Source: Liquidambar formosana (lineage: Eukaryota; Streptophyta; Magnoliopsida; Saxifragales; Altingiaceae). Taken from it: a DNA stretch of 64,000 nt. The notes beneath the pieces are model-generated. The model saw only the letters and a program-made list of their open reading frames with translations, made no database searches and had not been told where the DNA came from. Shown here piece by piece: positions 9,345 through 34,864 of this stretch. How positions within the stretch are numbered: position 1 is the first letter of the stretch; every line of letters starts with the position of its first letter. Position numbers and translations under genes: made by a program. The stretch covers positions 29,694,069 through 29,758,068 of the forward strand of contig CM077828.1 in the NCBI GenBank assembly GCA_039720395.1. The letters are read 5' to 3'.

Positions 9345-10679
9345 GTAAAATGATGTGATCTTATGTGTGTGTGTGTGTTTTTTATTTTTTTATTTTATAC
9401 ATGTGCGTTCATATAAGCTGTTGAAATTAGGGTTTTTGGAGCTGGGTTCCAATCTCTGTTTGTTTGTTCATGAAATTAGGGGTTTTCTCCCTTGATTCTT
9501 CAGATTCTTACTTTTGTTGTATTGGGGATGCTAAATCTTTGACCTTTGTACTGGTGGGTGTTCGTTGAATTGATTGTTACTCCACGTACTGTCATAGATT
9601 CTAACTTTTGTCCTCTTTGTGTGCGTATATATATATATACATATTTATGCTGGGTTTGTGCTCTTTGTATGTTGTTGCTGTAGCTAAGGGTTCTCTGAGC
9701 TGTTAGTCCTCTGAAAAGCTTTTGCTGGTTTGTGCTAGGATTAGAATCTAATAGTTAAATTTTGAGTTTTGCTTCGTATTCTTCTGCTAAATTGCACCAT
9801 CTTTAGAATTAATCTGTTTCAAAACAATTGGTCGGGTTTCAAAACTAGCTGCTCAAAGTTTTTATTTTATTTTATTTTTTTTCCCCCCTTTTAATTTCCT
9901 GCCCAAAGATTTCATTGGCTTAAAAGCATCTTTTCATTTATTTTTTAAAATCCTATCGAATTTTCCCAAGTTGAGTTAATATGTGGAAAGGCAGTTTTTT
10001 TTTTTTTTTTTTTTTTTCCATATCTAATTTGCTTTTTAGTAATTTTTAGTTTCTTAAAATATGCTCTCTTGGAATGCAAATTCAGTCATTCAGTGAATTT
10101 ACAAGTTTGTTGGAGTTTTTGAAGCCAATGTGTATTGGGCACGAGTGCATGAAAATTGCTTTATTTAGCAATACCAACACGAATGTACACATATGTCTTC
10201 ATAGCTCCTCAGTTCACCGTGTTCACAAATTTATTTTTGTAAACTTTGTAGTTCCTACCATACTATGTCTCAGCCATGGCCTTTGTTAGCTAAGGCATTA
10301 AACCCACCTTGATCATGAGTTACAACCTAAAATTCTTCTTAGTCACTATACATCACTTTTATTTTTAAAGTCTGTACATACTTCTTTAGTTACTGGACTT
10401 GTATTGTATAAGTATAATTATCTGATCATTAACCCTTTGCCAATTGGCATGTGGCAGTGTCGAGTGCATGATAATTATGTTTACTTTGTTGTTACACATG
10501 CATCTTTATTTCTTATCAATTATCATACTAGTGACCGGCTGGTTATTGGTTCACAGTTGATCATCATGTTGTATGCAAAGTGGATGCTTTATTTTTAGTT
10601 TTGGAAGTATGTTGAATTTATTATCTTCATTTTCTTTCGTGTGGTATTGCCAAATAACCTATGCTATCACTTAATGCAG
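9345..10679 (+). other. ClpC 5'UTR intron
   Basis: This 1.3-kb leader intron runs from GTAAAA at 9345 to TTAATGCAG at 10679 and splices 18 nt upstream of the ClpC ATG. It is T-rich with long T runs near 9995. Sequence from about 10305 to the acceptor is clearly related to 18651-19353 in front of the second ClpC, while 9345-10300 is not. This places the duplication breakpoint inside this intron. Confidence 0.65.
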
Positions 10680-10696
10680 ACCACCTGGTAGGAATT

Positions 10697-13600
10697 ATGG
10701 CTAGGGTTCTCGTTCAGTCAACAAATATCCCTGCTTCAGTCGCTGGTCGAAGGCATGGCCAATTTCAAGGATCTGGAAAAGCAAAAAGGACCGTCAAAAT
10801 GATGTGTAGTTTACAAACACCTGCATTAAGGATCAGAGGTTTCTCTGGATTGCGAGGTTCTAATGCTTTAGATACCATGGTAAAATCTGGCCATGATTTC
10901 CATTCCAAGGTAGCATCTTTGATCTCTGGTCGGCGAGGGAGGGCGAGCCGATGCGTTCCTAAAGCCATGTTCGAACGCTTCACAGAAAAAGCAATTAAAG
11001 TTATTATGCTTGCGCAAGAGGAAGCAAGACGGCTTGGTCACAATTTCGTTGGCACGGAGCAGATTTTGTTAGGTCTCATTGGTGAAGGCACTGGAATTGC
11101 TGCTAAGGTCCTTAAATCTATGGGAATCAATCTTAAAGATGCGCGTGTAGAGGTGGAAAAGATAATTGGAAGGGGCAGTGGATTTGTTGCTGTGGAGATT
11201 CCATTTACTCCTCGTGCGAAGCGCGTTCTGGAGCTCTCGCTAGAGGAAGCTCGTCAACTTGGTAACATTTTTATTTTTATTTATTTTGGTTACAATAACA
11301 TTAGATCTAGTAGCTAGCAACCATCAGGAAAGGCTTTGTTCATCCACATTCGTTCATTGGGATTATTGGATTTTTCTTTCTAATGGTTTTTGGTTTTATG
11401 ATCTTTTAGTTTTTGGTGTGTGTGTGTTGAGGTCTGGTGTGCCTATGTTTCCTTTCAATGGATGTCCTGATTTTCCCAATTTGCAGGACTGCTATATATA
11501 TATATATATATATATATATTTCCATTTTTTTGGCTTCCCATAAGGAAGAATTAGTTATACAATATCCCAAGTTATAAATCTTGTCTTTCCCAGACTATCT
11601 ATCAATATATCCTTTACTAGTAAGAAATATATCCTCAAGGTAACTAATATGATTTTTCTTGAATTTTTCAGGCCATAACTATATTGGATCTGAGCACTTG
11701 CTTCTTGGGCTGCTTCGTGAGGGCGAAGGTGTAGCCGCACGAGTTCTTGAGAATTTAGGTGCTGACCCAAGCAACATCCGTACACAGGCGAGCTTTACAG
11801 CCTTGTTCATTTTCTGTGTCAAGCCATGTTTTACTTGTGGCATTCCTTTTATTTTGATAATAAAAAAATAAACTATATGAAATTTTATTGGAGTAGGTTA
11901 TTCGTATGGTGGGTGAGAGCACGGAAGCTGTTGGTGCTAGTGTTGGAGGAGGATCATCTGGTAATAAGATGCCGACCCTGGAGGAGTATGGAACTAATTT
12001 GACTAAGCTGGCAGAGGAGGTAGTTTCCCAATCTTTTCTTTCATTTATGATATATTTAGTGGAACTGTGCACTTTTCATTTAAAGGCTTGTTCCTAATAT
12101 GATTTTCTTGCCTTTTTAGGGTAAATTGGATCCTGTTGTTGGAAGGCAGCAGCAAATAGAACGTGTCACCCAAATTTTGGGTCGGAGGACCAAAAACAAC
12201 CCGTGTCTTATTGGAGAACCAGGTGTCGGGAAAACAGCAATTGCAGAAGGCCTAGCTCAACGAATTGCAACTGGTGATGTTCCAGAAACAATCGAGGGGA
12301 AGAAGGTGAGTACACATTACAAGTAGATGTTAACTAGTTGCTCATGTTGAACCTGATATCTTTGGATTCAGGGACATGGTTTTCTGTCGCATGTTTAGAG
12401 AAACTAATGTGGAACCAATCTTGAAGTGATATAAAAAAATTGATTGACAATGAAAATCTCTTGTATATTCAGGTTTTATGCATACTGGTGATTTACACAA
12501 AATTCTTGTCATGCAACAAATGTATTCTCATTATCTTGAAATTTCTTTTTATTATAGTTGGATTCTTATGGTACTGCGCATATAATAAAGGTGTCTTTAC
12601 ACCTTCCCCCCCCCCCCCCCCCCTCCCAAGAAAAAAAAAAAGGTGTCTTAGCTTTGTCATTCTCGAATTTGTTGAATGTTGGAGTTGGACACGTCTGGCA
12701 TAGATATTGTGCTTCTATTGATGTTCAATGTAATATGTGGCATGATATGAAGTTTCCATCACGGAAATTCTGGAAATGTGACTTTTTGTTTTTATTAACT
12801 CCATGGGAGGAGGAAGAGTAAAAAATTGTATTTAATATATATTGGATAGTAAAATGTGTCCATACACAGGAGAGAGGAATTACATAAAGCTTTACGTAAA
12901 AGGATATTAGCTTAATTTTAGTGCTGTACTGGTACTGGTTGGCTATTATATCTGTCAGTTAAGAAATCAGATATCTCAGTTAGTTGACTAGTCTATTATC
13001 TTGAGACTCACTTCAATTAGAATATGTATGTAAAATCATGGGTTTTCTACCCTGGTGATTCAAGTCGCATCATTTTCTCCCTTTGGCGTCAGACAAATGG
13101 CCTTTGAATATCTCTGTAACTTGGTTGTCTTGTTGTAAAAGTTGCATTTTCAATCTTATAAATAAAAAGGGCACTTAGATCAGAGGTCTATGTTTTATTT
13201 TTCCTTATGCAGTTTTTGTGCTCAGACCGTTGTGCATTTTTTGGATTGTTAAACATTGGGTTAAGTTACATTATAGAGTTAATAAACCTGGGAGATATAT
13301 GCTTGTTGGCATTAATTCTCTGTCCTTGTGACCTTTAAATCAGAAATTTTGTTTTATTTCCAAGAAGCTGGCATTGTTATGTGTGCCTTATTATGGTGAA
13401 AAATGACTAATTTTCTGTTTGTGATTAGGTTATAACCCTAGATATGGGTCTTCTTGTTGCTGGCACAAAATATCGTGGAGAATTTGAGGAAAGGTTAAAG
13501 AAGCTTATGGAGGAAATCAAACAAAGTGATGAGATTATATTATTTATTGATGAGGTACACACTTTAATTGGAGCTGGAGCAGCGGAGGGAGCAATTGATG

Positions 13601-16285
13601 CTGCGAACATCTTGAAACCAGCTCTTGCAAGAGGTGAACTGCAGGTAATTTAGTCCCCAAAGCACATGCAAAACATGTGCTTTTGTTTCTTTGTTTCTTT
13701 CTTCTTCTTCTTCTTCTTTTTCTTTTTTTTTTTTTTTTTTAAAGCTTTGGAAATTGAGATGGGCTATCTTAATTGGTGCAGTGTATTGGAGCCACAACAC
13801 TAGATGAATACAGAAAGCACATAGAGAAAGACCCGGCCTTGGAAAGACGATTCCAACCAGTCAAAGTGCCAGAACCAACTGTGGATGAGACGATACAAAT
13901 TTTGAAAGGGCTACGAGAGCGATATGAAATTCACCACAAGCTCCGGTATACGGATGATTCCCTCATTGCTGCTGCACAGCTTTCATACCAATACATCAGG
14001 TATGTGGTTTATGAAATGTTAGATAGTTTAGCATTGGTGCTCTGTACTTTCCTACTTCTGCACCATGCCACCAACCTTCGATTGGTGCTGTTGATACACA
14101 GATGGTAACCTAAATAAATGAAGGTAAAGGTAAGCCATTTGCATGTTTTAACGTGCATATTAGTAGAAAATTGTTTTGAATGCAAGAAATGTGGGACCAA
14201 CTGTTTTAAATTAAGGAACGAAGATTTTAGGTTGCATGGTGTTGTGTTAACATTGACATCAATGAGATTCTTTATCAGAAAAAATAAAAAATAAAAAATA
14301 AACATTGACATCAGTGAGACTGATTTATATCACTACCAATCCTTATCTAGAAATTTTGCTTCGATGATTTATGGTGGGTTACTTTAGTATCTAGTGTATA
14401 ATTATATTTCCTGGATATGCCATTTGTTGTTCTCTCAGCCTAGTAGTCAGTTTTGCATGCTTTGATTTGATGGATATTATATGTATATTTCAGTGACCGC
14501 TTTCTGCCTGATAAAGCAATTGACTTGATCGATGAAGCTGGCTCTCGGGTTCGGCTTCGTCATGCACAGGTATGACCTCTTATTTTTCCAGTCTTTCCAC
14601 CACCCATCATTTCCCCACCATTCTTTGAAGTTAATTGTTACATGGTTGAATCTTTCCAGCTCCCTGAGGAAGCAAGAGAGCTTGAGAAACAGCTCAGGCA
14701 AATCACTAAAGAGAAGAATGAAGCTGTTCGCAGCCAAGACTTTGAGAAGGTACTGACAGTATCTTATTGCTTGGCTTTTTGCATTGTTATGCATGATTTT
14801 GTTTATAGGACTTTAGATGCTGCAATTCTTTTCCATGACGAGGGTGAACCAGTATGATAATTGATAAGATGGTTTTTGTCCCAAAGCTGAATTATATAGG
14901 GTTTCTGAAAACGAAGAATGTTGAAAAGTAATTCGATATTTGAGACTTTCTGCTGCTTGTTGCCTGCTGCCTATACTTATGTGGATATTAGATATTTGAT
15001 TGCTATTAGGTTGATAAGGATGCTGAAAGTACCATTTCAATTCTCTCTTTGGTGTTCACCAAACCAGTTTATCTACTAAGCTTACAGTACAAAATATCTT
15101 GAGCAGGCTGGCGAGCTACGTGATCGAGAACTGGAACTTAAGACACAGATCTCAAGTCTTGTTGATAAAGGCAAGGAGATGAGCAAGGCAGAGACTGAGG
15201 CAGGGGATGTAGGTCCTCTTGTAACAGAAGTGGATATTCAGCACATTGTCTCTGCGTGGACTGGCATCCCTGTTGAAAAAGTATCAACTGATGAATCGGA
15301 CCGCCTCCTTAAGATGGAAGAAACCCTCCACAAGCGAGTCATTGGTCAGGATGAAGCTGTCAAAGCCATCAGTCGTGCTATCCGTCGTGCTCGTGTTGGA
15401 CTTAAGAACCCCAACCGTCCAATTGCTAGCTTCATCTTTTCTGGTCCAACTGGTGTAGGAAAGTCAGAACTAGCAAAAGCACTGGCTGCTTATTACTTTG
15501 GCTCTGAAGAAGCCATGATCCGGCTTGATATGAGTGAGTTCATGGAAAGACATACCGTGTCGAAGCTTATTGGTTCACCCCCTGGTTATGTTGGGTACAC
15601 TGAAGGGGGTCAGCTAACTGAGGCTGTTCGGCGCCGTCCTTACACTGTTGTACTCTTTGATGAGATCGAAAAGGCCCACCCTGATGTTTTCAACATGATG
15701 CTTCAAATTCTTGAGGATGGAAGGTTGACAGACAGCAAGGGCAGAACTGTGGACTTCAAGAACACACTTTTGATAATGACATCAAACGTGGGAAGCAGTG
15801 TAATTGAGAAGGGAGGCCGCCGGATTGGGTTTGATCTCGATTATGACGAGAAGGACAGCAGTTATAACCGAATCAAGAGCCTTGTGACAGAGGAACTGAA
15901 GCAATATTTCAGGCCAGAGTTCTTGAATAGATTGGATGAGATGATTGTTTTCCGACAGCTCACAAAGCTGGAGGTGAAGGAGATTGCTGATATAATGCTG
16001 AAGGAGGTTTTTGAGAGGTTAAAAACCAAAGAGATAGAGCTTCAAGTGACAGAGAGGTTTAGGGATAGAGTGGTTGATGAAGGGTATAACCCGAGCTATG
16101 GGGCTAGGCCTCTGAGAAGGGCCATAATGAGACTTTTGGAGGACAGCATGGCTGAGAAGATGCTTGCAAGAGAAATCAAAGAGGGAGATTCAGTTATTGT
16201 AGATGTCGATTCTGATGGGAATGTTACTGTGCTCAACGGTAGCAGTGGTGCTCCTGAGTCGTTACCAGAGGCAATCACTGTGTAA
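10697..16285 (+). CDS. CLPC: Chloroplast ClpC, Hsp100 chaperone of the Clp protease (copy 1)
   Basis: Coding exons: 10697-11261, 11672-11787, 11897-12019, 12120-12305, 13429-13644, 13782-13999, 14494-14569, 14660-14749, 15107-16285; 922 aa, the normal ClpC length. ClpC unfolds substrates in the stroma, feeds them to the ClpP core and also acts at the import translocon. Visible are a transit peptide, two Clp_N repeats (about 95-245), AAA-1 with Walker A GEPGVGKT (300-307), Walker B ILFIDE and arginine finger ALERRF, the UVR/middle segment (about 501-550), AAA-2 with GPTGVGKS (643-650), VVLFDE and [11 protein letters not shown], and an IGF loop near 770 for docking ClpP. The ATG at 10697 (MARVLVQST) is chosen because the acceptor at 10680 removes upstream ATGs. 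The intron after exon 2 uses a GC donor. AATAAA lies at 16521. The sequence looks fully functional. Confidence 0.96.
11788..11896 (+). other. GC-AG intron in ClpC copy 1
   Basis: The exon ends ACACAG and the intron begins GCGAGC instead of GT, ending GGAGTAG before GTTATTCGTATG. The reading frame (NIRTQ then VIRMVGE) requires exactly this boundary. The paralogous intron of copy 2 also starts with GC. Confidence 0.85.
12606..12623 (+). repeat. Poly-C tract followed by poly-A
   Basis: An 18-base C run and a short CCTCCCAAG spacer lead into a 12-base A run in ClpC intron 4. It is prone to sequencing length error. Confidence 0.8.
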
Positions 16286-16670
16286 ACCAAGCCTCTTAAA
16301 TTATTAACCTTTGCCAATTTGTTGTTTGTACTTTTGCTTTCCATCGAATTTGCTATAGTCGTAGTCTGTTTTCTTCAAAAGACTACTTGGCAGTGGAATT
16401 GGAAGCTGCTTGATTAATTGGTGACTGGGTTTTTAGGCTGTATTTGTTACGCCATGAATGCTTAGTTCAGTTGGCATACGCTAGGATATTTTTAGTCTTT
16501 TAGCTTTGCGATGTATTCATAATAAAAGTATGTAATGACGGATAGGGTGAAGATTCAGTTGGTTCTATGTTATATATGTGATTTATCTCAATATTGTAAT
16601 CATGCTTTATAATGATGTTGCACACCTCAAAATTGGTCAGAATTTGTGAAATAAGCAGGCATTGTCAAAT
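16286..16670 (+). other. ClpC copy 1 3'UTR and flank
   Basis: T-rich 3' UTR with AATAAA at 16521-16526. Beyond it the sequence passes into the PHS1-derived fragment. Confidence 0.6.
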
Positions 16671-17254
16671 GAACAGGCTCTCTGTTGGATGCACCCCACG
16701 CTCAGTCCACCCACGAAATGCCCTATACCAAATAAAAAACAACAGATCAATTGGTGACCATCTGCCATTGCAGTGTATCAGTGCCATAAGCTTTTCTCAA
16801 TTTTAGCCCAACCATCCCCGATTTAGTTAGTGTCAATCACTTTCATGAGCAGTAGATTAGCTTGTGTGCCATTGATTGTTGCCATCAGGTTCTACCAAAG
16901 GGACACAGCCATGCCTCGGATGAAAAGCCTGCCGATTATTTTTAACAGCAGTCAAATGCAAGGTAGAAAGGGTCACCCCACTACCTTCGTAGAATTTTCC
17001 ATGCCAACCTTCTCGTGACCTCTATTCGTTTAGTGAAGATGACGACCTAGGAGCTGTTCCCTGCAAACTCTGCATCACTAACGACCTAGGAGCTGTTCCC
17101 TGCAAACTCTGCATCACTAACCTCATATACTCGTTTCAGCATTCTTTTGTGGTCACATTTTGTATTGTCTAATTGAAAAATCGATTTAAAATAATAATAA
17201 TAATACTAATAATAATAATGATCTATGTAACCAAAGTGGGATAATAGCATTGGA

Positions 17255-17285
<31 letters not shown>

Positions 17286-18080
17286 TATGGGCCAACATAG
17301 TTCATTATTTATTGGTTTGTGAAAAACCCTATTAGTAAGAACCTATGACTTTAAAATCTGAATCGTTCATACTTATGGGTCCCACATGATATGAATGGTC
17401 TAAATTTCAATGAATTGTCTATTAAATAAAGAGAATCTCTTCCTTACCTTATTACCTATAAAATGCGTTTTGTTACCAAGTTTAGAATTTCTTATTTTGT
17501 GTGGACTTGTAATTAGTAGTCATTGATAGATTAGGACTCGTTTATCATAAATTTAGAGAGTTGATCTCTACTCTCACTCAACAATTGCAATCTCAATTGA
17601 GATTGAGCAACCTAGTTGCCTTCCTTTCGCTACGAGACATTCAAGTTCTTCAATCTTCATTCATAGCCTGCTTGCAAATCACCATAGTTGAGGTACGCGC
17701 TCCCTATGCATTATGTCTCCAGCAATAAATATTGCTGCGTATATTAGTTTTTTACTTTGTTTCTTGGACCAAGCAGTGGAGCACCAAGAGGAAATTTCTT
17801 CCTTGGCAAACAAAAAATAAAAAATAAAAAATAAAAATAAAAAAAACCCAAGCCAACCCGACCCTCTTGTCACAGAAAAATAAAAAAAAATGGTATTCAT
17901 CGCTGGAAGCAAGGACGAGAATTTAAGGATTATTGCAGAGAGAAAAAGAAAATATTCAATTGTATTCAACATATGAGAAAGTTCAACGGAGAAACCAAAC
18001 CCAATACCAACGAAGTTTTGATAGACATGATTTCGAATTCGACGATTTCTGGAATTCGAATTCCAAACTAGTCTGAATTG
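16670..18080 (-). pseudogene. Decayed PHS1 fragment between the two ClpC genes
   Basis: Two blocks match the intact PHS1 gene in the same order and orientation. About 16670-17119 matches 29400-29925 (intron plus start of the long exon). Shared stretches include CAACAGATCAATTG, CTTGTGTGCCATT and TTTTCCATGCCAACCTTCTCGTGA. About 17762-17900 and 18025-18080 match 33315-33420 and 34175-34235 in PHS1 intron 3 (GACCAAGCAGTGGAG, CCAAACTAGTCTGAATTG). The exon block has an internal deletion and a 39-bp tandem duplication. The other exons are missing, and 17120-17760 holds unrelated sequence. It cannot encode a phosphatase. Confidence 0.8.
17042..17119. repeat. 39-bp perfect tandem duplication
   Basis: The unit beginning ACGACCTAGGAGCTGTTCCC occurs at 17042-17080 and 17081-17119. 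It is derived from PHS1 exon sequence and is present once in the intact PHS1 gene (about 29875-29915). Confidence 0.9.
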
Positions 18081-19370
18081 CAATACGAAAAGATCAGTCC
18101 CAACTTCACCATAAAAAGATGCTTGCTTGTTGGTTTCCATATGAACACCACAGAATCAATTTCCACCAAATAAAAATAAAATAAAATAAAATAGAAAGTT
18201 TGTGCCGTTAATGGAGATTGCCACTCCACAGGGCCCTTCCAATGAGAAGGGGCTTGGGATCAGGTAGGAAGATTTAGCTGAGAACAAACCATTCGTATTA
18301 TGTACCCACAAAAGTTTAGTTAGTTGCCCATTGATGTCGGTTTCCAATTGTTATTAGTATGACTATTTCCCTTTGTCACTGAGTTCTAGTTATGGTGGTA
18401 TTCTATTTTGGGTTTCTTATGCTTTTCTATATAATTGCTGTAAGAGGGCTTGGGGAGACAAGTTTTGATGATTAGTAAATTTATTTTCTTAGAGCTGCCA
18501 TTGCGCTTCGATATATCCTAGCTTGACAACCCACTTGTATCTGAGATTGAGTCCCACTTGTGTCTGGGATTGAGTCGTAATTGATTTACTTCTTTCCTAG
18601 TATTTTTCGCTGCGTTGTTAGATTGCAACGTGTGATTCTTACCTGCATCAGTTAAACCCACCATAGTCATAAGTCGGAACCTATAATTCGTGGTAGTCGC
18701 TATATATCACTGCTTCTTTGGTCACTTGCCCTGGACTTGGATCGTGTTAAGTATAATTATTTGCACATTAACCATTTGCCAATTGGGATGTGGCAGCATT
18801 TCGTTTTTAATATTTTCTGGCATGTATATATTTTATATTAACAATTTCTTGCGGCCTATGTCTCTGAAACTATGTTGATTAGGTAGACATAAGGTTAGGG
18901 GTGATTGGAAGCCAAGTTGTCTATGAACTATTATAAGGTGAAGATATAACTGATAAATAAATTTTAGTAACTGATGTGAGATCCAACATAATAATGGCTT
19001 CGATACGCTGCAATGGTTTTGAGGCCATAATTGTTCAAACCCCTTTTCTCAATCCTTGTACTCTACCAAATTCATATTTGTTCTGCTTTGCTTTTGTAAG
19101 GCCTGTATACTGTGTACCTTGATAGATAGAGAGACCAAGAAGTTTTGAATAGGTTGTTGATAATTATGTTTACTATGTTGTTGCTCATGCATCTTTGTTT
19201 CTTATCAATTATTGTAATAGTAATGGAGTGATTATTGGTTCACAATTGATCATCATGTTTATGCAAAGTGGATATGATGCTATGGTGAATTTGTTTTTTT
19301 CATTTTTTTGATGGTATTGCATGCCAAGTAACCTGTGCTATCACTGAGTGCAGACCACTTGGTGGGAATC
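18081..19370 (+). promoter_or_regulatory. Duplication junction and 5' region of ClpC copy 2
   Basis: Sequence related to PHS1 intron 3 ends near 18080, and sequence related to the ClpC 5'UTR intron begins near 18651 (TTAAACCCACC). The roughly 570 bp between was not assigned. Whatever promoter drives ClpC copy 2 must lie here or further upstream. The ancestral promoter and leader exon at 9221-9344 have no counterpart. A leader-intron acceptor (GAGTGCAG, 19353) is conserved 17 nt before the ATG. Confidence 0.6.
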
Positions 19371-22300
19371 ATGCCTATGGCAGTTCTTCAGCCAACAAAG
19401 ATCCCTACTTCAGCTTCTGTTCAAAGGCCTGACCAATTTCAAGGATATGGAAAAGAAAAAGCAACTGTCAAAATGACATATAATTTACCACCACCTGTAT
19501 TGAAGAATAGAAAAGAACAAACACCTGTATTAAGAGCTTTCTCTGGATTGCGAGGTTCTAATGCTTTTGATACCTTGGGTGTAAAATCTGGTGATGATTT
19601 CCATTCCAAGGTAGCATCTGCAGTCTCTGTCCGGCGAGAGAAAGCTAGCCGATGTGTTCCTAAAGCCATGTTTGATCGCTTCGGAGACAAAGGCATTAAA
19701 GTTATTATGCTTGCACAAGAGGAAGCAAGACGGCTTGGTCACAATTTTGTTAGCACAGAGATGATTTTATTGGGTCTCATTGGTGAAGGCACTGGAATTG
19801 CTGCTAAGGTCCTTAAATCTATGGGAATAAAACTTAGAGATGCGCGTATAGAGGTGGAGAAGATAATTGGATGGGGCAGTGGATTTGTTGCTGTGGAGAT
19901 TCCATTTACTCCCGGTGCGAAGCGTGTCCTGGAACTCACGCTAGAGGAAGCACGTAAACTCGGTAATATTTTTATTTCTATTTTTATTTTTGGTTACAAT
20001 AACTTTAGAGCTAGTAACTAGCAACTGTCAGAAAAGGCTTTTTCTGTTCACGTTCGTTCATGAGATTTTTATTTTTATTTTTATTTTTTTATGATGTTTT
20101 AGTTTTTCTGTGTATGTGTTGAGGACTAGAATGCCTATTGGAATATGTCTTATTTCATTCTCTTTTTTTCCGTACTGTTTCCTTTCAATGAATGTCTTGA
20201 TTTTCCCAAGTTGCAGGACTACTATATATCAAAATATCCTTTATGATTAAGAAAGATATCCATAAGGTAACTAGGAGTATTACTTTTCTTAAAATTTTCA
20301 GGCCATAACTATATTCAATCTGAGCACTTGCTTCTTGGATTGCTTCATGAGACCGGAAGTGTAGCAGCCCAAGTTCTTGAGAATTTAGGTGCTGACCTAA
20401 GTAAAATCCGTCAACAGGCAAGCCTTACATCCTTGTTCATTTTCACTGTCAACCCGTTTTTTTTATACTTATGGTGTTAAAAAATTAACCAATATAAAAT
20501 GTCTATTGGAGTAGGTTATTCGTATGGTGGGTGAGAACACAGAAGCTGTTAGTCCTACTGATGGAGGGACCTCTGGCAATAAGATGCCGACACTGGATGA
20601 GCATGGAACTAATTTGACTAAGCTGGCGGAGGAGGTAGTTTGTGATCTTTTATCTCATTTATGAGATATTTGGTGGTACTATGAACTTTTCATGTAAAGG
20701 CTTGTTTCTAATATGATTTTCTTGCCGTTTTAGGGTAAATTGGATCCTGTTGTTGGAAGGCAGCAGCAGATAGAACGTGTCATCGAAATTTTGGGTCGGA
20801 GGACTAAAAACAACCCATGCCTTATTGGAGAGCCTGGTGTTGGGAAAACAGCAATTGCAGAAGGCCTTGCTCAACGAATTATAGATGGTGATGTTCCAGA
20901 GACAATTGAGGGGAAGAAGGTGAGTACAAGTTCAGGTAGATGTTAACTAGGTCATCAAACTCAGGGACATGGTTTTCTGGTGCATGTTTGGAGAAACTAA
21001 TATGGACCCAATCTTGAAGTGGCATAGATCTAAAATAAATAGACTTTGAAAATCACTATGTGTATTCATCTTTATATGCATACAATAGTTCTTGACATGC
21101 TACATGACCTTGTAACTGCTTATGATGTTCAATATAATTTACTTGGATTCTGATGGTACTGTGCATACGCTAAAGGTGTCTTAGGTTTGCCATTCATGAA
21201 TTTGTTGAGCATTGGAGTCGGACATGTGTCTGGCATAGATGTTGTGCTCCTCATGATCAATATAACATGTGTCCATACAAAGCAAGAATTACATCAAGCA
21301 TTAAGTAGAAGGATATTAGCTTAATTTTAGGGCTGTACTGGCTGGATTCAGGTAAGAAATTAGATATCTGAGTTAGTTGACTAATCTTTTAGAACATGAG
21401 ACTCACTCCAATTAGGACGTGTATGTAACATAAAGCACATGGGTTTTCTACCCTGGCGATTCAAGTTGCATCATTTTCTCACTTTGGCTTCAGAGTTCAG
21501 ACAAATGGTCTTTGAATGTCACTGTAACTTGGTTGTATTGTGTTAAAAGGTGCACTTTAAATCTAAATAAAAAGGGTATTTCGGTGAAAGTGCGACCTCA
21601 CTTGTTTTAGCTCGATCAGCTGCCATGCCACTAAGTACCTGCTGCAGTTTTTATCCTCTTGTTAAACATTGGGTTAAGTTACAGCGTTATACAGTAGAGT
21701 TGATAAACCAGGGAGATATATGCTTGTTGGCGTTAATTTTCTTTGGGACCACCTTTAATACAAAAAAGTCATTTTATTTCCAAGAAGCTGGAATTGCTTT
21801 TTCTTCCTTATTATGGTGAAAAATGACTAAAATTCTGTGTGATTAGGTTATATCCCTTGATATGGGTCATCTTATTGCTGGCACAAAATTTCGTGGAGAA
21901 TTTGAGGAAAGGTTAGGGAAGCTAATGGAGGAAATCAAACAAAGTAATGAGATAATACTATTCATTGATGAGGTGCACACTTTAATTGGAGCAGGAGCAG
22001 CTGAGGGAGCAATTGATGCTGCGAACATCTTGAAACCAGCTCTTGCAAGAGGTGAATTGCAGGTAACTTAGTCCCCAAACACATGCAGGAAAAAACATAG
22101 ACTTTTCTTTCTTTCTTCTTATTATTCCCCTTTTTAAAAATTTTTTTGTGCTTTGGAAATTGAGATGGGCTATCTGGGGTAATTTAAATTTTACCTCTTT
22201 TTTCATTTCCCCTTCCTACCATGAATATCTTTATGGTGATCATAATATATGTTCTAGAAATCTTGAAGCTTCTCACATTATCACATTATTGTTCGTGGTG

Positions 22301-24401: not shown

Positions 24402-24432
<31 letters not shown>

Positions 24433-26244
24433 GTGGGTACACTTCAGTGATCGCTTTCTGCCTGACAAAGCAATTGACTTGATCGATGAAGCTGGTTCTC
24501 GGGTTCGGGTTCGTCATGCTCAGGTATGACCTCTTAATGTTCGAGTCTTACCATCACTCATCCTTCCCCACCATTCTTTGAAGTTAATTGGTTAACATGG
24601 CTGAATCTTTCCAGATCCCTGAGGAAGCAAGAGAGCTTGAGAAACAGCGAAGGCAAATCACTAAAGAGAAGAATGAAGCTGTTCGCAGCCAAGACTTCAA
24701 GAAGGTGCTGCCAGTATCTTGTTATTGCTTGGCTTTTGTATTCTTTTTATGCACGATTTTGTTTACAGGACTATATATACTGCAACTCTTTTCCTTGAAG
24801 AAGGTCAACCAATATGATAATTGATAAGATGGTTATTGTCACAAAACTGAATTATATAGGTTTTCTGAAAACAAAGAATGTTGAAAAATATCCGCTTCTA
24901 TTGCTTAATTGCTTCTTATAATTATGTTGTAAATAAATATTCGATGCTGAATGTACCTTCTCAATTCTCTCTTTTGGGTTCACCAACCAGTTTATATCTA
25001 CTAACCTTTACAATACAAAATGTCTTGAGCAGGCTGGCAAGCTACGCGATCGAGAACTGGAACTTCAGACACAAATCTCAGGTCTTGTTGCTAAAGGCAA
25101 GGAGATGAGCAAGGCAGAGATGGTGGCAGGGGATGTAGGTCCTCTTGTGACAGAAGTCGACATTCAGCACATTGTCTCTGCATGGACTGGCATCCCTGTT
25201 GAAAAAGTATCAATCGATGAATCTGACCGCCTCCTTAAGATGGAAGCGACCCTCCACAAGCGAGTCATTGGTCAGGATGAAGCTGTCAAAGCCATCAGCA
25301 GCGCTATCCGCCGTGCCCGTGTTGGACTCAAGAATCCCAACCGGCCAATTGCTAGCTTCATCTTTTCTGGTCCAACTGGTGTAGGAAAGTCAGAACTGGC
25401 AAAAGCACTAGCTGCTTACTACTTTGGATCCGAAGAAGCTATGATCCGGCTTGATATGAGTGAGTTCATGGAGAAACACACTGTGTCAAAGCTCATTGGT
25501 TCACCCCCTGGCTATGTAGGGTACACTGAAGGGGGTCAGCTAACTGAGGCTGTTCGACGCCGTCCTTACAGTGTTGTGCTCTTTGATGAGATCGAAAAGG
25601 CCCACCCTGACGTCTTCAACATGATGCTTCAAATTCTTGAGGACGGAAGGTTGACAGACAGTAAGGGCAGGACAGTTGACTTCAAGAATACGCTTTTGAT
25701 AATGACATCGAACATTGGAAGCAGTATAATTGAGAAGGGAGGTAAGCGGATAGGATTTGATCTTGATTTTGATGAGAAGGACAGCAGTAATAAACGAATT
25801 AAGAGCTTGGTGAAAGAGGAACTGAAGCGATATTTCAGGCCAGAATTCTTGAATAGATTGGATGAGATGATTGTTTTCCGGCAGCTCACGGAGCTGGAGG
25901 TGAAGGAGATTGCTGATATAATGCTAAACGAGGTTTCCAAGAGGCTAAAAACCAAGGATATTGAAATTAAAGTGACAGAGAGGTTCAAGGATATGGTGGT
26001 TGAGGAAGGGTATGACCCGAGCTATGGGGCTAGGCCTCTGAGAAGGGCCATAATGAGGCTCTTGGAGGACAGCATGGCTGAGAAGATGCTCACAGGAGAA
26101 ATCCAAGAGGGAGATTTGGTTCTTGTAGATGTCGATTCTGATGGGAGTGTTATTGTCCTCAACGGTAGCAGTGGTGCTCCTGAGCAGACGGGTGAACTGG
26201 GTTTCAATTTCCACAGGATGAGAACCACTAATTTTGCTCCATAG
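19371..26244 (+). CDS. CLPC: Chloroplast ClpC, second tandem copy
   Basis: Exons: 19371-19962, 20302-20417, 20515-20634, 20734-20919, 21847-22062, 23435-23652, 24448-24523, 24615-24704, 25033-26244; 941 aa, with intron positions and phases identical to copy 1. All open and in frame. Both Walker A motifs ([16 protein letters not shown]), Walker B, arginine fingers and the IGF loop are intact, so it should be an active stromal Hsp100. Differences concentrate in the transit peptide/N-terminus (+9 codons), the second Clp_N repeat ([14 protein letters not shown] becomes [14 protein letters not shown]), the UVR motif (DFEKAGELRD becomes DFKKAGKLRD) and the C-terminus, where SLPEAITV is replaced by an unrelated tail starting QTGELGFNF. 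The intron after exon 2 also has a GC donor. Introns 5 and 6 carry LINE and other insertions. Expression is uncertain because the ancestral promoter was not duplicated. Confidence 0.92.
20418..20514 (+). other. GC-AG intron in ClpC copy 2
   Basis: The donor is CAACAG|GCAAGC and the acceptor is GGAGTAG. It is orthologous in position to the GC-AG intron of copy 1, so the GC donor predates the duplication. Confidence 0.85.
22340..22595 (-). mobile_element. LINE 3'-end fragment in ClpC copy 2 intron
   Basis: Read on the minus strand it encodes the C-terminal region of a plant L1-type reverse transcriptase ([25 protein letters not shown]), with a degenerate form of the usual RIHVADP end. A (TTGAG)n-like tail follows, at 22347-22370 on the plus strand. 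It is 5'-truncated, and no counterpart was seen in the matching intron of copy 1, so it inserted after the duplication. Confidence 0.75.
22806..23050. mobile_element. Possible degraded MITE in ClpC copy 2 intron
   Basis: GGCTGTGTTTGGTTTGC at the left and GGGCTACCAAACTGTC at the right are imperfect inverted ends. Between them are GAATGGAATG-type repeats like those in the Tourist-like element at 3221-3455. No clear target duplication. Weak call. Confidence 0.35.
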
Positions 26245-27303: not shown

Positions 27304-28341
27304 CTATTCATCCATAACTGAATGAGACGGCCTTTGAGTAGGGCTGACACTCCCACCTCGGTTCATATTAAGTGCGGCCAAAGCCTTCTGTATCTCCATT
27401 GTCATGGCACTGTCCACACTCCCAGAAGATAACTTCTTGTGCGATTTCTGCAAATGAAGTTTAAGTGAGCTGCTGCTCAAACCAGCATTCTTCCCACAGA
27501 TGGGGCAAACTTTCATCATTGGTTTCCGCTGTTGCCACTCCATAGAAACCTTCCCATGCCGCTTCCGATCTAGGTCCAACAGAATCCTTGCAAACCCGTC
27601 ATTGGGCTGGGCTCGGCGGTGAACCTGTTTAAGGGTATTCCAGGCTTCTAATAGGGTGAAGTTCCTGAATCCAAAAAAAGGGCTGTCAATAATGCAACTT
27701 TTATTAAGAGATCATTAACAAACAATTTGAAAATTACTCCTCAACAATAGAAATTTGGGTGTATAGGATATCTAAGGCAATATCTGGGTGAGGACTAAAG
27801 TGTAACAGTGGGCAGGTTCCATATCAACAAGACTGAGACATAGACCTTCCATACATAATGTATAGTAATTGGGTATAAGATGTTCTATTCTACCATCTCA
27901 TTTTCACTTACTTCCTGAGCATTAAGTAAGCAAGAATTAACGTGGCACTTCTACTTCTCCCTTCAAAGCAATGAACCAGAACCCTCCCACCTGTTTGTTC
28001 AACATGATCAATAAAATTGGAAGCTTCTTCAAAGATATCACTGATATCTGTATCTTCATTGTCAAATATCTGTTAAATGAGCAAGGTAGTGTAATCAGTA
28101 GAAAAGAATTTCCAAACATATTTTCTTGAAATGATTGACTATTACAAAGTTGTATACTCAATTTAACAACTTCCATCTGAACTGCTTGGGGTTGGAGAGT
28201 TGTATATACAAAAATTGAGGTCACAAACATAATAAGAAACACTCTGTACTATTTTCTTTAAGAAAAAAGAAATATTTATTGAAGCTGGACCATATTTTTA
28301 CCATATCGTCTTTTCTGTTACGGAAATATATATACACATAC

Positions 28342-28379
<38 letters not shown>

Positions 28380-28406
28380 GGCCAATCAGGTCCTGGACCT
28401 GATCAA

Positions 28407-28443
<37 letters not shown>

Positions 28444-31400
28444 CAAACGACTTTTCCATTTTCAGTTTAAGTAGGAAACACGCAAATCAAAAAATTGCTA
28501 GAGGAAACTATGATTTAGGATCAAGCCAAATAGTGCAGCAAAACGGACCGACAATAGGAACCAAACAAGACACACAAACAAAAAAAGAAGGCACTTACAG
28601 AGAAATTTTTATACTCAAATAGGTCAGGATACTGAGAATCTGACTGTCCAATTTCATTGGAGCATAAGCACAATATGTGTGTGATTCTTAAATGTTGCAG
28701 TGTGTACACAGATCTTGCAGCCAGGGCCCCACCAATGAACAGGAACCCTGTAATTGAAGATGGCCTCTCTGTATTTGCAGCGTCAGATATCAATGCTATC
28801 CTCTCAAGAATGTGCTCAAGTCTGACCTATAAAATAACAATAATAATAATAATAAAAGAACAAATTAGTCAAACTATTTGTAGACAAGCACCCAAAATAA
28901 GTAGATAAATAAAATTGTTCTGCATAGAACTGCTGCCCTTGATAAGAATAAAAGTAATACCTTCAACTCGTAAGCATCAACAACACCATTATTATCACTA
29001 CCCTCAAAAAACCCTGTATTGAAATTGTTCTCCTGGCATAGTTTAACTACATCAGTTCTTAGCATTTCATTCCACTGTTCCAATTCTTTGTTTAGTTCTG
29101 CATCAACCTAGCAAAATGATAGTGATAGCAAATAACAAAACTTCAGTCAGAAAAAAAGATTTGGTTTAATGACAGAGCTCAGCAATTTCATAACAGAGCT
29201 CCTAGCCTCCTACTACATTCAAACAATTACAAATTTTTATACGAGGGAATTCCTCCATGAATATGCAACTAAGGAACCTCCCTCTTTCAATTCTTGGTGT
29301 CCTGTTCTAGTCATGCTCTGGAATTAATGCAACTTAATGTTGTAAATTAACCTAGAAAGAAAACGTGCCAAAAATTGATGACATAGTAAAACATAGCGCA
29401 TGTTTTCAAGATGAAAGCCACCAAACGCTCAATCCACCCATGAAATGTCCTCAACTAAATCAAAACAACAGATCAATTGTAACTATATGCTGGTGCAATA
29501 TATCAGTAGCATACACTTCGGTCAATTTTAGCACAACAATCCCTGAACTAAGTAGTTTCAATTTTTTTTAACGTTCACTTTTGTTAAGCAGTATATAATC
29601 TTGTGTGCCATTATGTACTACCAAAAAAACACCAGCCATCTCTTGAATGAGAAGTTTGCCAATTATTTTTACCAGCAGTCTGCTCTTTTTTTTCTTTTTT
29701 TCTTTTTTTAAAAAAAGGATCAATACAAACCTTTGCAAATTTATGGAAATCACGGAGCTTTGCTGTCAGGCGCAGGCTGCGAAGGGGCTCCCCACTCCCT
29801 TTGCAGAACTTTCCATGCCAACCTTCTCGTGAGATGGGAGAGCCAGAGTCTGAGCTCTCTTTATTACCTGAAGATGACGACCTAGCAGCTGTTTTCTGCA
29901 ACTCTGTATCACTTACATCTGGATGATTATCATTAATCACCCGTTCCTTACTTGTTGGAGAAGCACAATGAGCACCAACTCCAGCAACCTGTGAAGGTGA
30001 CTCAGGCACCAACAAGTCCTCTTTGTCGAAATCCCCCAAGGAAGTTCTATTTATAATATTATGAAATGTGCGTAACAGGCTATCCAGTTTTTGGTGAACT
30101 GTGAGTAGGAATATGTGGAATCCCTGAAGATCCCTTAGAGCAGCACGGAACCCACTACGAAATTCATGGACAACTGAACTCATTTCTGGTATCCTTATAT
30201 CACTTGTTGTGCCAGCATCTTCTGGTGGAGATCCTAATTTCCCCACTGTTATCTCATGTAACAGATTCGACGAGTATTCAGCACTGTTAAGAAGTAGTTC
30301 AACAAGCTTAGGATAATTTGCCTGGTCATTTGCACGTTTTCCAGCAGGAGGTCGGCGAGGAACACCAGAGTCAATTGCCACAATAAGAAAATCAGTGAAC
30401 GTTGACTCATTCAATGTTTGACTTTTTAGGTATGTGTCAATAGATTTTGGTGATGGCATGACCTCAGAAAGACAAGGACCATGTGATACCAAACCTGAAT
30501 TATAAGGGCCCGATCTGCTATCAACTGAATTTGCCCTTCTCTCATTCTGAAGAGCCCTAATTACCCTTGGTCTGTATTGCTTGATTGAAGAATTAAGGGC
30601 TTCCCCCATCGCATCCATATTTGCGGAGGCCATTTTGTCAGCCAACAATAAATTGGCAGAATTTCCACGCCATCTAAGCTGACGGCAAGGGAGTCGATCT
30701 TCATTTCTGATGACAAGGTCCAACATCAAGATCCTTCCAAGAGCAGCTGCTGTCTTGCCTGCAGTTTCCCGTGTATCAAATGCAGTTGAGCTTTCCAATA
30801 AAGGAGACCCATGTACATAGCTGCAAAAACAGAAGTTGATAGCCTTCCGAATTCCAAATAAAAACTCCAATTATCTTCTATTATAGTGTTTTACATCATA
30901 AAATTCCAGGCTCCCTCCTCTAACAATTGTTTATATGGTTAATGGAGATCTGAGAATTTGATTTAGAAGAACTAAGGTGAAAGTCATCTGCATGGAACCC
31001 CACCAAATATCATAGCATACTTTCTCCATGGCTCTACAAACTTTTATACATGCTGCATACATGCAGAAAAGCTGGATAATATGCCAGTTGGTCCTATCTA
31101 GAAGATAGCCTCATTTAATTATATTAACTATTCACACCCTCACATTTGATCCACTTGGCCCAAATGTCACTGCACAAATGCAGCAGGCCATGCAGGCCAA
31201 ACTATTCAACCATATGTCCAACCAAAAATGATTCCCCAGCAGACATCTAAGCCCGGTCAGATGACCCTAACCATAAAGATAAACTGAATTTCCCCAAACA
31301 AGTAAATAATAATAATAATAATAAAAGGTGGCAAGATAAATGGATTGTCTCTGCTCCCCCCAGCATATCCAGTAAGTGGACAGTAGTGGTGAAGGAAGCA

Positions 31401-34400
31401 CAGATATTCCATGCCACTGAATTAAAAAACCTTTCATAACAAAAAACAGCTGTGTTCGCACTTCATCAGGAAAAGGCATCGGCTAAGTTCAAGAGCTTCC
31501 AGAAGTTCTGAACATGTCACTTCACCAACTTCATCTTCTTCTAAAATAGCTGCATCTCTTGCTTTTTCTGCAGCTTCCTTGATCTGGAGCCACTCTGAAC
31601 TAGAATTATGAATGACTCTAGCCTGTCATGTCCCCCAGAGAAAAATTGGGTATATGTTAAAACTAACAGCCTAATATGGTAAATTCACATAACTGACTGA
31701 ATGAGAAGGTACAACTTGTGGGGTTCGGACTCCTAGCCTCTTTGCAAATTCATAGCCAAGACGTTCTGATTGTGTGGCCATCCTTGAAGATGATATTTTT
31801 ATGACAGCTGCCGCTTCCTTTGGGGAAGCATCATCATTCTCAAGCTGGTTAAATAGGGCAAAGAAGACAACTCCTCCAGAATTCACAGTGACCTGTATCC
31901 ACAAAACTGAAGAGAAGATAAGGCCATGAAGAAGAAGAAAAAATTAATGTACAAAGTCCTCACTTGTCATGAACCTAAGTAGAACCAATTGTCTAACTTG
32001 CAGTAAGAAATAGAATCTTAAATGATACCTATATTGGTCCACATGTGTAACCATGTAGCAGTGTTTCAGGTTTAGAGAGAAATATTTCAGAATTATAAAA
32101 ACAATTATGTAAGGACTGTTAATAATGTTTCCTTTGTTTGCATATTCATTCTTCATAATCTAGATTCCGGACATCAATTTGAAGAAGGTACACCCAATAC
32201 AGAGTTTTTTTCCTTTTTTCCATGGGGTAATTACAGATTGGTCTGGCTACGGGCAAATCAATACATATTACTACTAACTTCCTAGTAACTGACTACTAAC
32301 AAATTACTACTAACTTATTGGTAAATGACTACTAGCTTAACAAAGAATGACTACTAACTGTAATTATTTGCCCGTAGCCGGACCAATCTGTAATTCCCCC
32401 TTTTTCCAGTAGTCTTTAAAACAAATCACATACCTCAAGGGCTCTATTCATTTCATCCTCAGAATGTTCATTGCTACTGCTATGTTCAGTGTGATGAAGT
32501 GAAAAAAGCATGTCCCAAGAAAAATAACTCGACTCGATATCCAACATGGTAGCTTTACCGAGTCTTTCCCACAAACTGATTTCTGTAGCTTGCTCAAAAG
32601 GCAGAGTACTTCTTGAATCAATAGTTGGTTCTCCTGCACTGAATAACAAACATGATGACAACTATGTAACAAGGCTAGCTAAGTTTGCATGACAGCCACA
32701 TTTCAACACACATAAACACCCCACACAAAAACACAGAAAATATAATATAAGAGTAAGTTAAAACATCTTATGATTGCACCATGCACACATAATCCTTGTA
32801 GAATTTGGTAAGTTGTTTCCTATTTTATATAAATACGGTGTTCACTATATTGCCTCATTCTATGTCATCTGAGATTTGTAAGGGTGAGGAGGATGATCAG
32901 GAAAAACAATAAGTAAAAGGATGAAGCCATCAAAATCAACCAGATTTTTTTCATATTTTAAATATTCGAACATTTTAATTAATGTAAAATGCTTGATGTT
33001 AGTCAGTGATGAGATGTACAAAGTGTTCAACATAGCCACACACACACAAAAAAAAAAAAAAAAACGCTAACCAAAACAGACTCAAAGCAAGGAATAAATA
33101 AATCAAGAGGAAACTCCTCACCAATAAACTCAGAGACCACAGCAAAAGCATTTTCAACTGCTACCAACCAGAATAAAAGCATAGCAGAAAATGCCATAAT
33201 CTCCTCAACACCCAGTCAATGGAAACCTCTTAGATTATAAAAAAAAATCTTAGCTCTCTCTTCCAGCAACCCACTCAAATGTGAATCATTCTCATCCTCC
33301 AGAACTTTCTTCCTTAGACCAAGCAGTGGAGTACCAAGAGGAAAGTACTTCCTTGACAAACCAAAAAAGAATCAAGCCACCTCCAACCCTCTTGTCATAA
33401 AAATCCAAAATGTAGAAACAAAGAGGACAACAAATAAAAGAATGATTGATTAGGTGCTAGATTTCCTACATAACACACTGAATAGACTATGCCCACCACC
33501 TAAAACTTGCATAATCAATCTTTGGAAGTTCATTGAAAGCTGCTTCCCACACAAGAAAATCAACTTCAGGGAAGGTACACTTCATGTTGGCTTTGGTCCA
33601 ACTAAATTTGAAGTTTCTTTCTGTCCCTGTCCCTCTTCAAGTTAGGTCAAACAACTTACATCTAATTGCTAAACTTGGTTAATAATTCAATACTCAAGGG
33701 GAAAAAAAAAAAGGGACCTAGAAATTGAGCAACAATATCTAATATTCCAATATCATGTCAACTCACCATCAGCAAATGAATGTACCCACAAACTGATAGA
33801 TTGAATGGAGCAAACAGACAGCATAAAAGAATAAATCAGAGTTACTTCCAGGAGATAGTTTCTCATGGAAGCCACATGACTAAAAATAAGTGCTGACTTT
33901 TGAATTCATAAATTGAAGGGATTAAGATCAAAATGCACATTTTTCCATTCGCGGTAAAAAAGGTCTGATAGTGTGCTTGGGGCCAAAAAGGCGAAAACTT
34001 TAAAGCATATCTTTAGTACTTTCCAAAATTAAATTTGATAAATTATGCCTTTGAGAGTGCTCTTAGCAGAGATGCTATAATGTTCAGCATGCAAAACAAG
34101 ATATTAATTATTTATTTTTGTACTAGGTCACGATTGTTATTGGGTAAGACTGTAAGAGAGACTACTTCATTATTTTGATTACGAATTTGACGATTTCTAG
34201 AATCTTAGCCACGGATAACAATCCAAACTAGTCTGAATTGCCTTGGTTTTTGGTTTCTTCTTTCAGTAATCCAGCGACATTCCCAAATACTTAGCCAGAT
34301 ATTCATTATCCAGAAAGGGGTAAAGAAAAATACCTCAATGGCATAGTATCAAGTCTAAGAGTGCTTGGTCGGTGGGGGAAGCCAGAGGAGCGATATCTCC

Positions 34401-34864
34401 CACTACGCTTACGAACCAATTCCAACCATTGGGCGAACCGATATGCGGAACCTGCCGTTATATCTCCTAACATATACAACACCTGCATTCACCAATTGCT
34501 CCAAAATCATTTCACCAATTGCCTCCAAAATCATCACCTATATACATATAGAAAATGCATTTACTCACACGAGAAGTGACGGTGATGGGAAAATGGGCCG
34601 GAGGTTGATCAGATCCCAAATCCAACTCCTTCTCTTCCTCCTCCTGCAACTCCCACATATAAGCAACAACAACAACAACCAAAAGAGATCCAAAACACAA
34701 GAATGGGGAAAATGTCAGATACTGAAAACCCTAGATCCATAGAAACTATACGAAACCCTAAATTAAGAAAAAGTAGAGAGAGAAAGAGAGGGAGGGAGGG
34801 AGGGAGGGAGGACCTGGAGAGTGCTGTTGATGATTGCAGACTCTTGCTTTTGCTCTGTGGCCAT
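27304..34864 (-). CDS. PHS1: PHS1, dual-specificity phosphatase with tubulin-kinase domain
   Basis: Eleven exons: 34814-34864, 34569-34643, 34334-34482, 32434-32638, 31716-31892, 31462-31622, 29731-30820, 28961-29107, 28599-28826, 27912-28069, 27304-27664; 933 aa (Arabidopsis PHS1 is 929). All junctions close in phase. PHS1 controls cortical microtubules. Its N-terminal actin-fragmin-kinase-like domain phosphorylates alpha-tubulin under osmotic stress, and the phosphatase domain restrains it and acts on MAP kinases. Visible are a basic RKRSGRYRSSG segment (about 66-76, the docking-motif region), the kinase-like domain with LDLVIRNEDRLPCRQLRWRG encoded near the start of the long exon, and the DSP signature HCFEGRSRS with catalytic Cys about 795. 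A conserved C-terminal CPICGKNAGL/LHLQKSH segment has zinc-finger-like spacing. The donor of exon 1 (GTCCTC) is weak, so the first 17 residues are the least certain part. Confidence 0.94.
28325..28441. repeat. Compound AT/GA microsatellite with short palindrome
   Basis: In PHS1 intron 9, (AT)n then (GA)n, the palindrome TCAGGTCCTGGACCTGA, and a second (AT)n tract at 28410-28441. Confidence 0.8.

What the first reader, a model, noticed from the sequence alone, without database searches (positions are those of the whole stretch)
9345..34864. Tandem duplication with both breakpoints inside genes: ClpC 5'UTR intron to PHS1 intron 3
Sequence directly shows two ClpC genes of identical exon structure, an intact PHS1 after the second and a decayed PHS1 fragment after the first. 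Similarity of the ClpC 5' regions starts only at about 10305/18651, inside the leader intron. Similarity of the PHS1 regions stops at about 18080/34235, inside PHS1 intron 3. That is the signature of a single internal segment duplicated head-to-tail: the left copy keeps the ClpC promoter and a headless PHS1, the right copy has a promoterless ClpC and a complete PHS1. The headless PHS1 then decayed while the promoterless ClpC stayed open, which implies it found a new promoter.
Basis: partly seen in the sequence, partly recalled or inferred. Interest (0 to 1): 0.75.

Follow-up and report, generated by a model that had tools for sequence, protein, structure and literature searches.

The report
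Half-copied gene pair, surviving divergent ClpC
In this plant genome a stretch of DNA holding one chloroplast protein-unfolding gene and part of its neighbour was copied side by side; the extra unfolding gene lost its original start region yet has stayed intact while its normally unchanging substrate-gripping end has changed a lot.

Summary
Confirmed. The window is plant nuclear DNA (core eudicot; trees hint at Saxifragales). Two full-length ClpC genes stand head-to-tail, with an intact PHS1 gene (minus strand) after the second and a decayed, collinear PHS1 remnant after the first. ClpC similarity begins at about 10298/18652, inside the leader intron; PHS1 similarity ends at 18081/34241, inside PHS1 intron 3. 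The 570 bp between show no convincing match to either flank. New: the right ClpC is constrained (no stop or frameshift where about 12 and 21 are expected neutrally) but took 89 of 100 one-sided protein changes. Its changes are enriched in the N-domain, which in the left copy equals Arabidopsis ClpC1 at 144 of 144 residues and differs at 22 in the right. Catalytic motifs are kept. The new promoter is inferred, not shown; a larger duplication plus one deletion would leave the same pattern. A few other plant ClpC rows are about as divergent. A good new case of a known kind of duplication.

The parts
9222..9344 (+). ClpC-L TATA-like site (TATAAG) and untranslated leader exon ending at donor 9344; transcription start not known
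   Evidence: sequence read directly, site and donor; no counterpart upstream of R found
9345..10679 (+). ClpC-L leader intron; only its last ~380 bp (from about 10298) is shared with R
10697..16285 (+). ClpC-L coding region, 9 exons, 922 aa, slow evolving
16646..17124 (-). PHS1 remnant block A (end of exon 7 and intron 7; in-frame stop, deletions, 39-bp local repeat)
17754..17820 (-). PHS1 remnant block B (intron 3)
18028..18081 (-). PHS1 remnant block C (intron 3); end of the PHS1 similarity
18082..18651 (.). junction filler of 570 bp without convincing similarity to either flank; possible place of a new promoter or leader exon for R. A donor-like site (18263) and a TATA-like site (18428) are there, but the TATA lies downstream of the donor, so they do not form one unit
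18652..19354 (+). tail of the ClpC leader intron kept upstream of R, interrupted by 361 bp (18797-19157) without counterpart in L; acceptor at 19354 kept
19371..26244 (+). ClpC-R coding region, 9 exons, 941 aa, open, fast evolving, N-domain altered; the last 19 residues and stop (26185-26244) are new
27304..34864 (-). intact PHS1 gene (933 aa, 11 exons; actin-fragmin-kinase-like and dual-specificity phosphatase domains)
32639..34333 (-). PHS1 intron 3, in which the similarity to the left remnant ends (34241)

Best explanation
A segment from the ClpC leader intron to PHS1 intron 3 was duplicated head-to-tail. The left ClpC kept the native promoter and leader exon and does the ancestral job. The PHS1 piece of the left unit lacked the first three exons and promoter, was useless and decayed. 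The right ClpC lost promoter and leader exon but is transcribed from sequence in or near the 570-bp junction (inferred), has been kept by selection (shown by its open, constrained frame), and makes a plastid Hsp100 with intact ATPase and ClpP-docking motifs but a changed N-terminal substrate/adaptor domain, transit region and C-terminal tail (sequence changes shown; altered substrate or adaptor choice inferred). It probably acts, alone or in mixed hexamers with L, as a specialised or tissue-restricted ClpC (inferred).
For: Collinear direct-repeat blocks with ends inside both genes. Ancestral pair: of 28 species that I counted by hand as named in both the ClpC listings and the PHS1 listing, 13 have a ClpC and a PHS1 with the same longest-contig length; consecutive locus tags in 3 (Carpinus FH972_018719/018720, Carya I3843_11G001200/001300, Rehmannia DH2020_018889/018888). 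Constraint: no stop and no frameshift in R relative to L, against 12.2 stops (0 of 2000 simulations with none) and about 21.5 frameshifts expected on a neutral branch; dN 0.071, dS 0.255. Asymmetry: 11 L-only against 89 R-only changes with a recalled Arabidopsis outgroup; at columns at least 90% conserved in 149 plant ClpC rows L deviates at 1, R at 59. N-domain: 17 of 125 near-invariant columns changed against 27 of 531 elsewhere, Fisher p 0.002; L N-domain 144/144 identical to Arabidopsis ClpC1 5GUI, R differs at 22 of these. All nine motif strings tried are in R, and whole-protein Pfam finds both Clp_N repeats, both AAA modules, UVR and D2-small in R.
Against: No transcript evidence for R. 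No row above 83% identity to R among the 120 listed of 7997 scored; no close relative of the species shows in the listings either (best identity to the first 110 residues of L is 77%), so absence of an R orthologue says little. R is not uniquely divergent: at near-invariant columns Dillenia P0179 deviates more (85/644 against 44/656) and three Actinidia rows come close (34-35). The native C-terminus of R is gone. Clustering of R changes at the two phosphoarginine-type pockets is not significant (8/28 vs 15/117, p 0.08). Liquidambar P0121, possibly akin to R, looks degenerate.
Confidence: 0.7

Rival explanations
1. A larger unit (ClpC with promoter plus whole PHS1) was duplicated in tandem, and one later deletion removed the PHS1 head of the left unit together with the ClpC head of the right unit.
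For: Leaves exactly the same final order; the 570 bp without clear match could be filler at a deletion or a leftover of the flank.
Against: Needs two events instead of one; the junction matches nothing else in the window at E 1e-3, so no leftover of the outer flanks was seen.
Confidence: 0.2
2. R is a slowly dying gene with no special role; it stayed open through past function or partial dosage, and its N-domain changes are drift.
For: R-branch dN/dS about 0.5 if synonymous change is shared equally (inference); C-terminal tail replaced; related Liquidambar copy degenerate; other plant ClpC rows are comparably divergent; in Caenorhabditis, short duplication spans that may miss regulatory sequence go with asymmetric divergence (PMC3637608, passages).
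Against: No stop or frameshift where about 12 and 21 are expected neutrally; the eight coding-intron splice-site pairs and nine motifs are kept.
Confidence: 0.3
3. The PHS1-like blocks are dispersed repeats, not remnants of PHS1.
For: Blocks B and C lie in an intron, are short, and block C is palindromic.
Against: Block A contains PHS1 exon 7 coding sequence; three blocks are collinear in order and strand; no other match in the 64 kb.
Confidence: 0.03

Closest known systems
Structurally partial or short-span tandem duplicates (Katju; PMC3449122 and PMC3637608, passages seen)
   Same: Duplication span misses part of a gene and its regulatory sequence; asymmetric divergence follows
   Different: Those surveys concern young pairs, mostly Caenorhabditis, fly and yeast; this pair is older (dS 0.25) and the copy is a plastid AAA+ unfoldase
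Arabidopsis CLPC1/CLPC2
   Same: Two plastid ClpC paralogues in one plant
   Different: 92% identical (PMC5347014, passages); on different chromosomes (At3g48870, At5g50920 recalled); here adjacent, 86% identical and strongly asymmetric
Syzygium grande NL676_003669/NL676_003670 (P0079, P0154)
   Same: ClpC genes with consecutive locus tags and equal contig length, sisters in the tree
   Different: A separate event in Myrtaceae; both gene models look imperfect (odd N-terminal extensions, P0154 lacks the C-terminus)
Plant ClpD
   Same: An Hsp100 whose N-domain differs from ClpC more than the rest does (PMC5347014, passages)
   Different: Old paralogue, about 48% identical to ClpC; R is a ClpC copy at 86%

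Membership tests
ClpC (plastid Hsp100 with two AAA modules) | Two Clp_N repeats, two AAA modules, UVR motif, D2-small domain | tested here: met
   whole-protein Pfam scan of L and R
ClpC (plastid Hsp100 with two AAA modules) | Walker A/B motifs of both modules and IGF loop | tested here: met
   nine motif strings found in L and R; meaning of the motifs recalled
ClpC (plastid Hsp100 with two AAA modules) | Near-invariant plant N-domain (usual, not defining) | tested here: inconclusive
   L 144/144 with 5GUI; R differs at 22 of 144 but remains a Clp_N pair
ClpC (plastid Hsp100 with two AAA modules) | Plastid import | not testable with these tools
   N-terminal extension present in both; import not tested
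Tandem partial (short-span) duplicate | Direct head-to-tail order with shared similarity ends | tested here: met
Tandem partial (short-span) duplicate | Single neighbour pair in outgroups | tested here: met
   consecutive tags in 3 species; equal contig length in 13 of 28; 15 of 28 not; whether those loci hold one pair only was not checked
Tandem partial (short-span) duplicate | One event, not duplication plus deletion | tested here: inconclusive
   both give the same final structure
PHS1 (propyzamide-hypersensitive 1 type phosphatase) | Actin-fragmin-kinase-like domain plus dual-specificity phosphatase domain | tested here: met
   PF09192 and PF00782 in the spliced protein; 81-83% identity to Davidia and Nyssa PHS1

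The most novel reading that the evidence does not exclude
Losing its promoter freed ClpC-R to become a functionally new plastid unfoldase: an Hsp100 whose adaptor/substrate domain, unchanged between the left copy and Arabidopsis, was rebuilt around positions that match the two bacterial phosphoarginine/adaptor pockets (T7 to G; neighbours of E32, T81 and E106) while the groove residues (F2, F80, K85, E89) stayed, giving altered adaptor choice or loss of resting-state repression.
Probability: 0.22. Interest if true: 0.6.

Novelty: new member of a known kind. Interest (0 to 1): 0.4.

Why it matters
It is a clear natural case in which a gene copy seems to have lost its promoter at birth yet was kept by selection for a long time, so promoter acquisition can be tested directly. 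If the right protein works, it also offers a natural variant of the N-domain of a chloroplast unfoldase whose sequence is otherwise almost fixed, useful for finding what that domain recognises.

Tried and rejected
Looked for ClpC upstream similarity beyond 10298 and PHS1 similarity beyond 34241: word-7 BLAST gave only E 0.066 or worse upstream of ClpC; Smith-Waterman with 200 shuffles gave nothing convincing (the earlier run with 30 shuffles, tested only 18138-18651). With a wider frame the local alignment starts 15 bp earlier, at 10283/18636. The strict scheme left one 18-bp match on the PHS1 side reached by 3 of 200 shuffles. The 361-bp piece in the R leader scored just above 30 shuffles (75 vs max 74) but 19 of 200 reach it.

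Looked for a new promoter or leader exon for R: one donor-like site (18263) above the median of real donors where 0.7 is expected (mononucleotide shuffles); three strict TATA-like sites; 20 ATGs between 18460 and 19370; four ATGs in 18083-18300, so even an exon ending at 18263 could carry upstream ATGs. No decision possible.

Tried to place Liquidambar P0121 as the R orthologue: of 100 sites where L and R differ, it matches L at 63, R at 13, neither at 24. In the careful tree R and P0121 are sisters with support 42/0; holding L and R together costs nothing (p 0.46). Undecided; both are long branches.

Pocket clustering of R changes, tallied by hand: p 0.08, not claimed. Pfam on nine further ORFs gave serine carboxypeptidase in two and two weak DUF matches below cut-off; the ORF in the intron-5 insert gave none. 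Paper searches that returned no title on a ClpC-PHS1 tandem: (listings only); searches not made may hold one.
Full report
What is there. The window is plant nuclear DNA. ClpC-L (coding 10697-16285) and ClpC-R (coding 19371-26244) lie head-to-tail on the + strand. PHS1 (27304-34864) is on the minus strand and converges on ClpC-R. A decayed PHS1 piece lies between the two ClpC genes. Self-comparison shows one diagonal of blocks from 10298/18652 to 16258/26184, then PHS1 blocks.

Gene models. Both ClpC genes have nine coding exons with corresponding splice sites; exon lengths L/R are 565/592, 116/116, 123/120, 186/186, 216/216, 218/218, 76/76, 90/90, 1179/1212. The second coding intron is GC-AG in both. 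L is 922 aa, R 941 aa, 792 of 916 aligned residues identical. PHS1 is an intact 11-exon, 933-aa gene with both expected Pfam domains, 83 and 81% identical to Davidia and Nyssa PHS1.

Breakpoints. L has a leader intron (9345-10679); R shares only its last part, from about 10298/18652 (10283/18636 in a wider local alignment). On the other side PHS1 similarity runs in three collinear blocks and ends at 18081/34241, inside PHS1 intron 3 (34333-32639) and 92 bp short of exon 3. Known blocks exceed 200 of 200 shuffles; the 570 bp between (18082-18651) do not stand out against the ClpC side (20 and 70 of 200 shuffles reach the score in two schemes) and against the PHS1 side only through one 18-bp match in one scheme (3 of 200). 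It matches nothing else in the window at E 1e-3. Block A holds exon 7 coding sequence with an in-frame stop, so the remnant is not merely an intronic repeat. The left unit also lacks exons 4-6, most of exon 7 and exons 8-11.

Ancestral state. The protein database holds many plant genomes. Counting by hand, 28 species are named in both the ClpC listings and the PHS1 listing, each listing being the best 120 rows. In 13 (Malania, Tetracentron, Carpinus, Camellia sinensis, Fagus, Carya, Durio, Corchorus capsularis, Cornus, Prunus brigantina, Abrus, Salvia splendens, Rehmannia) a ClpC and a PHS1 row give the same longest-contig length. In 15 they do not (Actinidia chinensis, Actinidia rufa, Craigia, Ziziphus, Ulmus, Hibiscus sabdariffa, Hibiscus trionum, Populus x canadensis, Bauhinia, Erythroxylum, Lonicera, Gastrolobium, Glycine max, Mucuna, Cannabis). 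Rows stand for clusters, so a miss is weak evidence; equal length is a proxy for the same contig; rows with truncated or missing names were left out unless contig and genus fitted (Salvia P0031, Malania P0037, Durio P0118). Consecutive locus tags are stronger and occur in Carpinus, Carya and Rehmannia, so in rosids and asterids; in Tetracentron the tags are 23 apart. A ClpC-PHS1 neighbour pair is thus the likely ancestral arrangement. Whether those loci hold just one pair was not checked. One Malus model fuses PHS1 with a serine carboxypeptidase domain (P0252), and such a gene lies next to PHS1 here.

Which plant. L, R and Liquidambar formosana P0121 group together (97/95; 95). PHS1 falls outside the asterid, rosid and Vitis groups. 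That hints at woody Saxifragales, but Kalanchoe and Rhodiola, also Saxifragales, do not join them with support, and no listed row exceeds 77% identity to the first 110 residues of L.

Age and constraint. Introns of L and R are 76% identical (JC distance 0.29; one poorly aligned intron included), dS is 0.255. A neutral branch of half that length would carry on average 12.2 in-frame stops (0 of 2000 simulations had none) and about 21.5 frameshifting indels; R has none relative to L, apart from its replaced tail. So R has been kept by selection for most of its life. At columns at least 90% conserved in 149 plant ClpC rows L deviates once, R 59 times. With 89% of the nonsynonymous change on R (recalled outgroup) and synonymous change shared equally, R has dN/dS about 0.5 and L about 0.06 (inference).

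Where R changed. At near-invariant columns (97% or more) R changed 0 of 5 in the transit region, 17 of 125 in the N-domain, 13 of 226 in linker plus D1, 2 of 53 in the M region, 9 of 230 in D2 and 3 of 17 at the C-terminus, 44 of 656 in all; N-domain against the rest p 0.002. R is second of 151 rows in this measure, behind Dillenia P0179 (85/644) and not far ahead of three Actinidia rows (34-35), so such divergence is rare but not unique, and wrong gene models may add to it in those rows. The L N-domain is identical to the solved Arabidopsis ClpC1 N-domain over 144 residues (5GUI). R differs at 22 of these, among them T96G (bacterial T7), G119S and Q122M beside E121 (E32), R173G near the T81 position and G194Q near the E106 position (bacterial numbering from a recalled sequence). 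In Staphylococcus aureus ClpC the two phosphoarginine pockets help hold the resting state, and T7D, E32A or E106A changes activate the enzyme (PMC12583610, passages); that T81 belongs to the second pocket is recalled. In plants the N-domain is the platform for ClpS1/ClpF, and four cyclomarin-contact residues are conserved (PMC5347014, passages); the matching positions 92, 170, 175 and 179 are not among the R changes. I know of no established role of the phosphoarginine pockets in chloroplasts, and clustering of R changes at them is not significant (p 0.08). R also has a changed transit region and 19 new C-terminal residues that begin exactly where L/R similarity ends; the L tail resembles that of Camellia.

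Promoter. L has a TATA-like site and a leader exon without ATG in 9240-9344. R has no counterpart. Its junction holds TATA-like strings and one strong donor-like site (18263, CAG|GTAGGA), but one such donor is what chance gives (0.7 expected), and the TATA at 18428 lies downstream of it. R keeps the leader acceptor, and 20 ATGs lie between 18460 and the R start, so an unspliced leader would be poor for translation. A new first exon spliced to the old acceptor is therefore likely, but this is inference.

Verdict. The one-step duplication is the most economical model; duplication of a larger unit plus one deletion is not excluded. Duplicates whose span misses part of a gene and its regulatory sequence, with asymmetric divergence, are a described class (PMC3449122 passages; PMC3637608 passages). 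The surviving, constrained, N-domain-altered ClpC-R is the part worth following. On checking against the calls I lowered confidence from 0.72 to 0.70, the novel case from 0.25 to 0.22 and interest from 0.42 to 0.40, because other plant ClpC rows turned out to be nearly as divergent.

Noticed in passing
310-1776 and 5403-7016: A second direct duplication (72.7-74.6% identity) upstream of ClpC-L; the second copy holds a stretch that resembles a leucine-rich-repeat receptor kinase by recall; Pfam found nothing in the one fragment tested (6748-7020).
   Followed up: partly
22176-23417: 1.2-kb insertion in the fifth coding intron of ClpC-R; a minus-strand ORF in it (22359-22625) looks like a LINE-type reverse transcriptase tail by eye; Pfam gave no match.
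   Followed up: partly
11788-11896 and 20418-20514: Both ClpC copies use a GC-AG intron at the same position.
   Followed up: no
17042-17119: Two exact head-to-tail copies of a 39-bp unit inside the PHS1 remnant.
   Followed up: no
18036-18079: PHS1 remnant block C is itself a self-complementary inverted repeat at the very end of the PHS1 similarity.
   Followed up: no
39113-41122: Serine carboxypeptidase (S10) exons on the minus strand beside PHS1; a Malus model fuses PHS1 with such a domain (P0252), so the neighbourhood may be old.
   Followed up: partly
P0121 (Liquidambar formosana L1049_001514): A ClpC of 677 aa lacking the D1 part, with many unusual residues; perhaps a decaying orthologue of ClpC-R or an independent dying copy.
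   Followed up: partly
P0079 and P0154 (Syzygium grande): ClpC genes with consecutive locus tags in Myrtaceae, so ClpC tandem copies seem to have arisen more than once.
   Followed up: partly
P0179 (Dillenia), P0165, P0150, P0139 (Actinidia): Plant ClpC rows with many changes at near-invariant columns: other fast copies or faulty gene models.
   Followed up: no
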